Of a stretch of DNA of 64,000 bases, positions 58,415 through 59,474 are shown one piece after another. Numbering within the stretch: the stretch's first letter is position 1; each line of letters starts with the position of its first letter. Source of the stretch: Micromonospora sp. WMMA1947. GTDB taxonomy: Bacteria > Actinomycetota > Actinomycetes > Mycobacteriales > Micromonosporaceae. The notes beneath the pieces are model-generated. The model searched no databases. It worked only from the letters and a program-made list of their open reading frames with translations, and was not told the origin of the DNA. A program made the position numbers and the translations under genes. The stretch covers positions 2,294,001 to 2,358,000 of the forward strand of contig NZ_CP114909.1 of assembly GCF_027497355.1 (NCBI RefSeq). The letters run 5' to 3'.

Positions 58415-59415
58415 GGGGTGTCTCCCGGGGTGTCGGCGCTCTCGGGCGGGGCGGTACGGGGGTCACGCTTGCGGGGAAGCTGGACCACCACCGTCTGCGC
58501 CCGCTTGTCGTGCAGGGCCTGGCGCAGGGGGTGGTCGAACAGGGGCGATACCGCGTCGATGAGCTGGAGCACCAGGCCCAGCCCGCAGCAGTACCAGAGC
58601 AGCGTCGGCAGGCCGAGCGTGCTCCAGCGCCGGGTGGCCCGGCCGAAGCCGAGCGGCTGGTCCGCCTCGACCGGCAGCGCGCGAATGCCCATCAGCCGCT
58701 TGCCGAAGGTCTGACCGCGCGCCGCCATCGACGGCACCTCGTACGCGTACCAGAGCGCGGTGGCGATCACCAGGATGGCGATCTGGAGGCCGCCGGCCTG
58801 CTCGTCGATCTGGGGCAGCCCGTCCGTGGACGTGTCACCGTTGAGCGCCCGGCGCACCGATTCGCGCAGGTACGGGGAGACCGCCTCGACGTAGCGCCAG
58901 ACGAACCAGCCGTTGACCACGGCGTTGAGCAGGAACACCACGCCGAAGTCGATCAGGCGCGCGACCAGCCGGGCGCCGTACGACGCCAGCGGCAGCCCGT
59001 GCGGGCGCGGGATCGGCTGCGCACCGGGCCAGTGCGGGTACGGCCAGCCCGGCGGCGGTCCCTGCGTGCCCGGCTGACCCGGCTGGCCCGGCCACGGGTT
59101 CGCCGGACCCGGCTGCCCCGGCTGTCCCGGCCACGGTCCTGCCTGACCCGGCTGACCCGGCTGGCCCGGCCACGGGCTCGGTCCGCCCGGCGTGCCGGAC
59201 GTCGGCGTCGCGTCGGGACGGCCGCCGGTACGCGCGGCCTGGTGGTCGGCGGCGGGCGTCGCGGTGGCCGGCGCGGGCTCGGGTTCGGCGGGCGGCGGGC
59301 CGTCGGGCGGGGTGACGTCGACCGGGATCGGCGCGCCGATCCACCCCTCGCCGTCCCACCAGCGGCGGGTCTCCGGATCGGCGGGGTCGACGTACCAGCC
59401 AGGTTCCAAACTCAC
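58411..59415 (-). CDS. DUF2510-RDD membrane protein with Pro/Gln/Gly repeats
   Basis: 334 aa from GTG. N-terminal DUF2510-like module (EPGWYVDPADPETRRWWDGEGW, residues 4-25), a linker with three to four WPGQPGQPG-type repeats of about 13 residues (about 80-130), then an RDD domain with three or four helices (LASYGARLVARLIDFGVVFLL; AILVIATALWYAYEVPSMA; GQTFGKRLMGIRA; WSTLGLPTLLWYCCGLGLVL). Function of RDD proteins is poorly known. Its GTG start is joined to the upstream RDD gene by the 59-nt repeat. Confidence 0.8.
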   Translation of the reverse strand: MSLEPGWYVDPADPETRRWWDGEGWIGAPIPVDVTPPDGPPPAEPEPAPATATPAADHQAARTGGRPDATPTSGTPGGPSPWPGQPGQPGQAGPWPGQPGQPGPANPWPGQPGQPGTQGPPPGWPYPHWPGAQPIPRPHGLPLASYGARLVARLIDFGVVFLLNAVVNGWFVWRYVEAVSPYLRESVRRALNGDTSTDGLPQIDEQAGGLQIAILVIATALWYAYEVPSMAARGQTFGKRLMGIRALPVEADQPLGFGRATRRWSTLGLPTLLWYCCGLGLVLQLIDAVSPLFDHPLRQALHDKRAQTVVVQLPRKRDPRTAPPESADTPGDTP

Positions 59416-59474
59416 GATGCCGTCCTTGTTCCCGACTGCGGGGCTCGCAGACCCGGCTCACTCCTCGCGCTCAC
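59412..59474 (-). repeat. 59-nt GTGAG repeat joining two RDD genes, single unit
   Basis: From GTG 59474 (minus strand) to the GTG start of the downstream RDD gene at 59415. The first GTGA contains the stop codon of the upstream RDD gene. Reading from 59474 gives a 20-codon frame (SARSEPGLRAPQSGTR core) whose TGA stop overlaps the next GTG start. It matches the units at 42622-42762 in its GCGAGGAGTGAGCCGG and GCGAGCCCCGCAGTCG blocks. Confidence 0.9.

What the first reader, a model, noticed from the sequence alone, without database searches (positions are those of the whole stretch)
59412..59474. A 59-nt repeat that acts as a ready-made stop-start relay between two RDD genes
The element starts in the GTGA that contains the upstream stop codon and ends in the GTGA that contains the downstream start. 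It holds its own 20-codon frame with both overlaps, so ribosomes could pass from gene to mini-frame to next gene. This looks like insertion or duplication at a GTGA coupling site, leaving coupling intact: a portable translational coupler.
Basis: partly seen in the sequence, partly recalled or inferred. Interest (0 to 1): 0.75.

Follow-up and report, generated by a model that had tools for sequence, protein, structure and literature searches.

The report
Stop-start relay repeats in Micromonospora
A short repeat that sits exactly where one bacterial gene stops and the next starts carries its own tiny reading frame that could hand the ribosome on and keep the operon linked; it is built like the MIRU repeats of mycobacteria but lies in another group of bacteria.

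Summary
Window 59474..59412 (minus strand) holds a 59-nt unit plus the next GTGA between two RDD genes. The first GTGA holds the upstream stop; a 20-codon frame follows; its TGA lies in the GTGA that starts the next gene. The genome is a Micromonospora with about 28-30 copies, and the unit family is in 121 of 121 genus genomes searched. The same RDD|RDD junction in 65 sequences is a natural experiment: 21 have a bare GTGA overlap and 44 carry inserts of many lengths. In all 44 a stop/start chain reaches an in-frame start of the downstream gene, over at least 27 changes of insert state on a one-gene tree. Of 191 units, lengths are 2 mod 3 in 141, 0 in 47, 1 in 3. Mini-frame stops occur in 0 of 150 units, against 17 and 14 in the other frames. 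Eight of ten other junctions have an exact empty DTGA site in a relative. The architecture is that of mycobacterial MIRUs, so the principle is known; sequence family, hosts and natural-experiment evidence appear new. Translation and mobility are inferred, not shown.

The parts
59412..59474 (-). 59-nt repeat unit plus the next GTGA
   Evidence: sequence read directly; about 28-30 genomic copies
59471..59474 (-). left GTGA: stop codon (TGA) of the upstream RDD gene overlapping the GTG of the mini-frame
   Evidence: ORF 59471..60175; chain walk
59412..59474 (-). 20-codon mini-frame, closed by the TGA in the right GTGA
   Evidence: no in-frame stop in 150 of 150 related units
59412..59415 (-). right GTGA: mini-frame stop overlapping the start of the downstream RDD gene
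   Evidence: ORF 58411..59415
59423..59427 (-). AAGGA, Shine-Dalgarno-like stretch supplied by the unit upstream of the right start
   Evidence: sequence; 126 of 160 distinct units carry an SD-like 4-mer at -16..-4 of the right start, shuffled mean 79.6, maximum 95
59471..60175 (-). upstream RDD-family gene
   Evidence: PF06271 E 2.6e-19
58411..59415 (-). downstream RDD-family gene
   Evidence: PF06271 E 2.2e-26
58411..58414 (-). control junction: bare ATGA overlap between the second RDD gene and an aminotransferase gene (PF00155; hisC-like is a recalled label)
   Evidence: no insert in 58 of 58 resolved sequences
42622..42741 (+). two tandem 60-nt copies of the unit between two other sense genes

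Best explanation
The unit belongs to a family of small interspersed elements of Micromonosporaceae that lie at GTG-A start sites, most often where GTGA is also the stop of the preceding gene. SHOWN: the insert lies exactly between two copies of GTGA where relatives have one; it carries a frame opened by the first GTGA and closed by the second; units stack in tandem; insert length and frame mostly stay compatible with a stop/start chain. INFERRED: a ribosome ending the upstream gene re-initiates on the unit's GTG, helped by the Shine-Dalgarno-like sequence at the end of the upstream gene. It reads about 20 codons, terminates in the second GTGA, and re-initiates on the native gene, helped by the unit's own purine-rich stretch. 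Because the handover survives, an insertion is nearly harmless, and length changes that break the chain tend to be removed. The peptide itself is probably not what matters.
For: (1) RDD|RDD junction, 65 sequences: 21 bare GTGA, 44 with inserts; 38 of 44 have one mini-frame ending in the downstream start overlap, the other 6 are chains of two or three. At least 27 changes of insert state and 14 empty/insert changes on a quick tree of the upstream gene; both Dactylosporangium sequences are empty. (2) Ten other junctions, 9 relatives: of 75 stretches fetched 70 were resolved; 26 are exact empty DTGA overlaps, covering 8 of 10 junctions; of 30 with inserts of at least 10 nt, 24 relay and 2 are in frame (my tally). 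(3) Genus-wide: of 70 arrays resolved on both sides, 55 arrive by relay and 10 by in-frame extension. (4) 191 units: 141, 47 and 3 in length classes 2, 0 and 1 mod 3; subtypes differ by indels that cancel (-5, +2). (5) Mini-frame stops in 0 of 150 units, 17 and 14 in the other frames; stop-making substitutions expected 14.5 given position variability, 1 observed, no actual stop. (6) SD-like 4-mers: 126 of 160 units before the right start; 68 of 114 left flanks, shuffled mean 35.8. (7) In one plasmid record RefSeq's own gene calls abut a unit: CDS end 1504, next start 1560, match start 1501. (8) Core operons carry it: dihydroorotase|carbamoyl-phosphate synthase small subunit and chorismate synthase|shikimate kinase.
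Against: No ribosome profiling or reporter data. In-frame copies (10 of 70) extend the downstream protein instead of relaying. Arrays without a resolved upstream sense gene also mostly keep the relay (12 of 17), so part of the frame rule is inherited from the master unit. 5 of 70 arrays and 4 of 30 other inserts break the chain. The stop-avoidance test is modest when distinct changes are counted once (P 0.028, 0.0125, 0.14, 0.71 for lengths 59, 60, 62, 56). Synonymous fractions do not clearly single out the mini-frame (59-nt class 0.39, 0.37, 0.39; others vary). Copies are related, so counts are not independent.
Confidence: 0.72

Rival explanations
1. Passive insert: a neutral repeat whose master copy happens to be 59 nt long. 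Coupling is preserved only because length is inherited, and each downstream gene is started by its own Shine-Dalgarno sequence.
For: Arrays without a resolved upstream sense gene keep the relay too (12 of 17). The unit brings an SD-like stretch. In-frame copies are tolerated (10 of 70).
Against: Different inserts at one junction (steps of 20, 23, 26, 32, 41, 44, 59, 71, 77, 80, 125 and 146 nt) all give the chain. There are compensating indels, no mini-frame stops against 17 and 14 in the other frames, and only 3 of 191 units in the 1 mod 3 class.
Confidence: 0.2
2. Regulatory element of another kind: promoter, protein-binding site or RNA structure that happens to sit at gene starts; the open frame is incidental.
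For: The MIRU-bearing senX3-regX3 spacer is reported to drive regX3 independently (PMC4213456, passages). The DNA core is very conserved.
Against: No fold signal in three units tested: z 1.21, -0.30 and 0.38; covariation term -0.09. No Rfam match in window 59000-60000. Frame and length rules would be unexplained. No promoter test was run.
Confidence: 0.08
3. The units are mobilised by a REP-associated (Y1) transposase like enterobacterial REPs.
For: Dispersed, short, many copies, tandem stacking.
Against: No PF01797 match in the own genome, while 5 of 14 control genomes match. No stable hairpin in three units folded.
Confidence: 0.03

Closest known systems
Mycobacterial interspersed repetitive units (MIRUs; Supply et al. 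1997, not seen itself, only as cited in PMC12548453 and PMC4213456)
   Same: Short, intergenic, tandem copies; said to insert at start codons so that an ORF within the element is coupled to the next gene with -4 nt spacing. The MIRU lengths named in PMC4213456, 77 and 53 bp, are both 2 mod 3, as here.
   Different: Host is Micromonosporaceae. Probably a different sequence family: the unit model matched only the window's own family among 121 order genomes, but no MIRU sequence was compared. Several different-looking inserts replace each other at one junction. In-frame variants occur.
Coupled small ORFs (RTGA) of mycobacteria (PMC4633059, passages)
   Same: Small ORF ends in the RTGA that starts the next gene; in some cases the linkage is kept while the small protein diverges.
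   Different: In the passages seen they are small ORFs found from leaderless transcripts, not dispersed repeats inserted between two genes.
   Same: Same stop, mini-ORF, start layout in 8 of 8 sites of that family that were read (6 relay, 2 in frame; two of the 8 are orthologous).
   Different: Different core sequence; by eye closer to the 26- and 80-nt inserts at the RDD junction than to the 59-nt unit.
REP/RAYT elements (features recalled)
   Same: Short dispersed intergenic repeats.
   Different: No hairpin signal and no Y1 transposase found.

Membership tests
MIRU | short interspersed intergenic repeat, tandem copies possible | tested here: met
MIRU | contains an ORF whose ends overlap the flanking stop and start codons (-4 nt) | tested here: met
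   not in every copy (10 of 70 in frame, 5 of 70 broken)
MIRU | inserts at a start codon / DTGA coupling site | tested here: met
   exact empty sites in relatives at 8 of 10 junctions; 21 of 65 RDD junctions empty
MIRU | sequence homology to mycobacterial MIRUs | tested here: inconclusive
MIRU | occurs in mycobacteria | tested here: not met
   nearest named relatives at the locus are Micromonospora
REP/RAYT element | cognate Y1 (PF01797) transposase in the genome | tested here: not met
   0 matches in the own genome, 5 of 14 controls positive
REP/RAYT element | stable imperfect palindrome | tested here: not met
   fold z-scores 1.21, -0.30, 0.38 for three units
Functional translational coupler | downstream expression depends on translation of the mini-frame | not testable with these tools
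   needs reporters or ribosome profiling

The most novel reading that the evidence does not exclude
Actinomycetes hold a whole class of modular ribosome-relay elements. Several unrelated sequence families home to GTG-A start sites, take over the native Shine-Dalgarno sequence and supply a new one. They are gained, swapped, nested and stacked at the same operon junctions again and again, and selection removes states that break the stop/start chain. Operon junctions are thus interchangeable GTGA-to-GTGA cassettes.
Probability: 0.45. Interest if true: 0.78.

Novelty: new variant of a known kind. Interest (0 to 1): 0.58.

Why it matters
It suggests, by natural replacement across dozens of species, that the 4-nt stop/start overlap is a selected property of actinobacterial operons. 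It offers ready-made matched junctions (empty, one unit, tandem units, in-frame unit) for measuring re-initiation. It extends the MIRU principle beyond mycobacteria. In the one annotated record seen here the mini-frame is unannotated, and in-frame copies could mislead the calling of gene starts.

Tried and rejected
RNA structure: no signal. Rfam: no match in window 59000-60000. Y1/RAYT transposase: none in the own genome. Phages: no match; plasmids: one Micromonospora plasmid. Peptide-level selection: synonymous fractions do not clearly favour the mini-frame. GTGA preference over ATGA: right ends G 50, A 7 against G 22, A 15 for bare overlaps (one T left out), p 0.0025; the baseline is small, so this is only suggestive. 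The ATGA junction next door was never occupied, but that is one junction. Papers: searches showed no report of such units in Micromonospora; these are listings only (one search lists 12 of 622, one search lists 20 of 23), in an open-licence library that lacks most subscription papers. Passages were read in PMC12548453, PMC4213456, PMC4255298 and PMC4633059.

Rows dropped and labels: of 80 loci, 64 were used and 16 of other genera or groups (L126-L131, L133-L142) left out. Seven of 65 were unresolved at the control junction; L112 is printed there with d 36 but has the same in-frame ATGA at 0. 75 stretches were taken of 90 possible junction-genome pairs; 5 were unresolved. One search's label 'empty' at the ten other junctions includes in-frame inserts, so empty counts come. 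At the RDD junction, L118 is 'overrun' because its downstream gene is frameshifted after the start; its mini-frame does end in the start overlap. L075's chain reaches an in-frame GTG 6 nt before the start chosen. In the 102 arrays, the genus loci are best-scoring matches and 60 stretches from the capped listing (three further listed sites not fetched), so they lean to consensus-like copies. In one search units count only if a GTGA or ATGA lies 56-63 nt on. In some searches exact matches were listed and 12 loci fetched; the own-genome copy (L280) and one in a further family (L279) did not show the layout, and L287 was too near a contig end to read.

Full report
What is there. On the minus strand, the RDD gene at 60175..59471 stops in a GTGA, and the next RDD gene starts in a GTGA 59 nt further on. 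Between them lies a unit beginning GTGAGCGCGAGGAGTGAGC. A 20-codon frame opens on the first GTG and closes on the TGA of the second GTGA. The same unit occurs twice in tandem at 42622-42741 and about 28-30 times in the 6.31-Mb genome. The host is a Micromonospora: at this locus the nearest named relatives are M. chalcea and M. tulbaghiae.

Distribution. The unit matched all 121 genomes of the genus that were searched. As a 19-nt pattern with one mismatch allowed it matched 153 of 300 family genomes (by my count of the listing all 106 of the genus and 47 of 194 others), in 22 of 44 genera; the reversed control gave 7 matches in the 300 genomes (my count). A sequence model of the unit matched 12 of 121 genomes of the order, all in the window's family. 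One plasmid copy, in Micromonospora terminaliae, lies exactly between two RefSeq genes; phages gave none.

Placement. I oriented 102 distinct arrays (own copies, best matches, and stretches from the capped listing) and judged coding frames from GC periodicity. 73 follow a sense gene whose stop is in the unit's first GTGA, 12 follow a sense gene stopping elsewhere, 5 follow an antisense gene and 12 are unresolved. Downstream, 98 have a resolved sense gene, and 82 of these have an in-frame start 52-66 nt after the last unit start. Following stop/start overlaps as a ribosome might, of the 70 arrays with the upstream stop in the first GTGA and a resolved downstream gene, 46 relay, 9 relay and then continue in frame, 10 are in-frame extensions, 3 break at a gap and 2 overrun.

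The natural experiment. The RDD|RDD junction was read in 65 sequences, the window and 64 loci. Twenty-one have a single GTGA shared by stop and start, including both Dactylosporangium and M. humi, which branches next outside the window and its three nearest relatives. Forty-four have inserts: among them the 59-nt unit once, twice or three times, a 26-nt element in 20 species, and frames of 23, 32, 41, 44, 71, 80, 125 and 146 nt; that several are unrelated is my judgement by eye. In 38 one mini-frame runs from the upstream GTGA to a TGA overlapping the downstream start; in the other 6, two or three such frames follow each other to an in-frame start. A quick tree of the upstream gene, with 14 of 62 inner branches poorly supported, needs at least 27 changes of insert state, states being named by step lengths, and 14 between empty and occupied. 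The neighbouring ATGA junction of the same operon has no insert in any of the 58 resolved sequences.

Other junctions. Ten further copies of the window's genome were compared with nine relatives. Of 70 resolved sites, 26 are exact 4-nt DTGA overlaps without insert, covering 8 of the 10 junctions. Fourteen have other spacings under 10 nt. Thirty have inserts of at least 10 nt, of which 24 relay (a few to an in-frame start slightly before the one chosen by alignment), 2 are in frame, 3 have gaps and 1 overruns (my tally). Two of the junctions are dihydroorotase|carbamoyl-phosphate synthase small subunit and chorismate synthase|shikimate kinase.

Signs of selection on the frame. Of 191 units, 141 have lengths of 2 mod 3, 47 of 0 mod 3 and 3 of 1 mod 3. 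Subtypes differ by -5 and +2 changes that cancel to a multiple of three. None of 150 distinct units of the four main lengths has a stop in the mini-frame, whereas 17 and 14 have new stops in the two other frames. Given how variable each position is, 14.5 stop-making substitutions were expected and 1 was seen, in a codon that does not become a stop; counting each distinct change once, the signal is modest (P 0.028 and 0.0125 for lengths 59 and 60, not significant for 62 and 56). There is no clear sign that the peptide is conserved. The unit's 3' end carries an SD-like 4-mer in 126 of 160 units (shuffled mean 79.6), and so do 68 of 114 left flanks (shuffled mean 35.8).

Beyond the family. A different core, GTGAGCGAGCGCAGCGAG, was found in 7 of 98 genomes of the class, five of them in one other family. 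The 8 sites read in that family all have the upstream stop in the first GTGA and reach the downstream frame, 6 by relay and 2 in frame; two of the eight are orthologous. The own-genome copy of that core (L280) and one in a further family (L279) do not show the layout.

Reading. The simplest account is a small mobile or recombining element whose anatomy lets it sit in a coupling site and keep the ribosome handover. This is how MIRUs are described (PMC12548453, passage). PMC4633059 (passages) reports that in mycobacteria the coupled linkage is sometimes kept while the small protein diverges, which fits. Shown here: position, empty sites and frame preservation. Inferred: translation of the mini-frame, re-initiation, and how the unit spreads. 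The one transposase test made (PF01797 in the own genome) found nothing.

Limits. Copies are related, so simple probabilities overstate the case; the tree count is the better guide, and it rests on one gene. Part of the frame rule is inherited, since arrays without a resolved upstream sense gene show it too. Gene frames were mostly inferred from composition, not annotation. MIRU homology was not tested against a MIRU sequence.

Noticed in passing
window 42622-42741: Two tandem 60-nt copies; the mini-frame runs through both and stops at 42760-42762, about 10 nt before a possible GTG start at 42773; the chain of overlaps reaches the downstream frame further on. Start of the downstream gene uncertain.
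   Followed up: partly
window 26970-27024 and 62019-62073: Another dispersed 55-nt repeat (85% alike) with GGGCCCC and TTAAC motifs.
   Followed up: no
   Followed up: partly
L067-L070, L087, L088, L092-L094 and others: A 26-nt element GTGAGCGAGCGCAGCGAGGC.. sits at the RDD junction in 20 species and also keeps the relay.
   Followed up: partly
L071: A 59-nt unit followed by a 20-nt step that by eye resembles a shortened 26-nt element: possible nested insertion at its left GTGA.
   Followed up: no
L278 (Micromonospora terminaliae plasmid pLB1): A unit lies between lysophospholipid acyltransferase and glycerol-3-phosphate dehydrogenase genes, with no gene listed for the mini-frame.
   Followed up: yes
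L118: Downstream RDD gene appears frameshifted shortly after its start.
   Followed up: no
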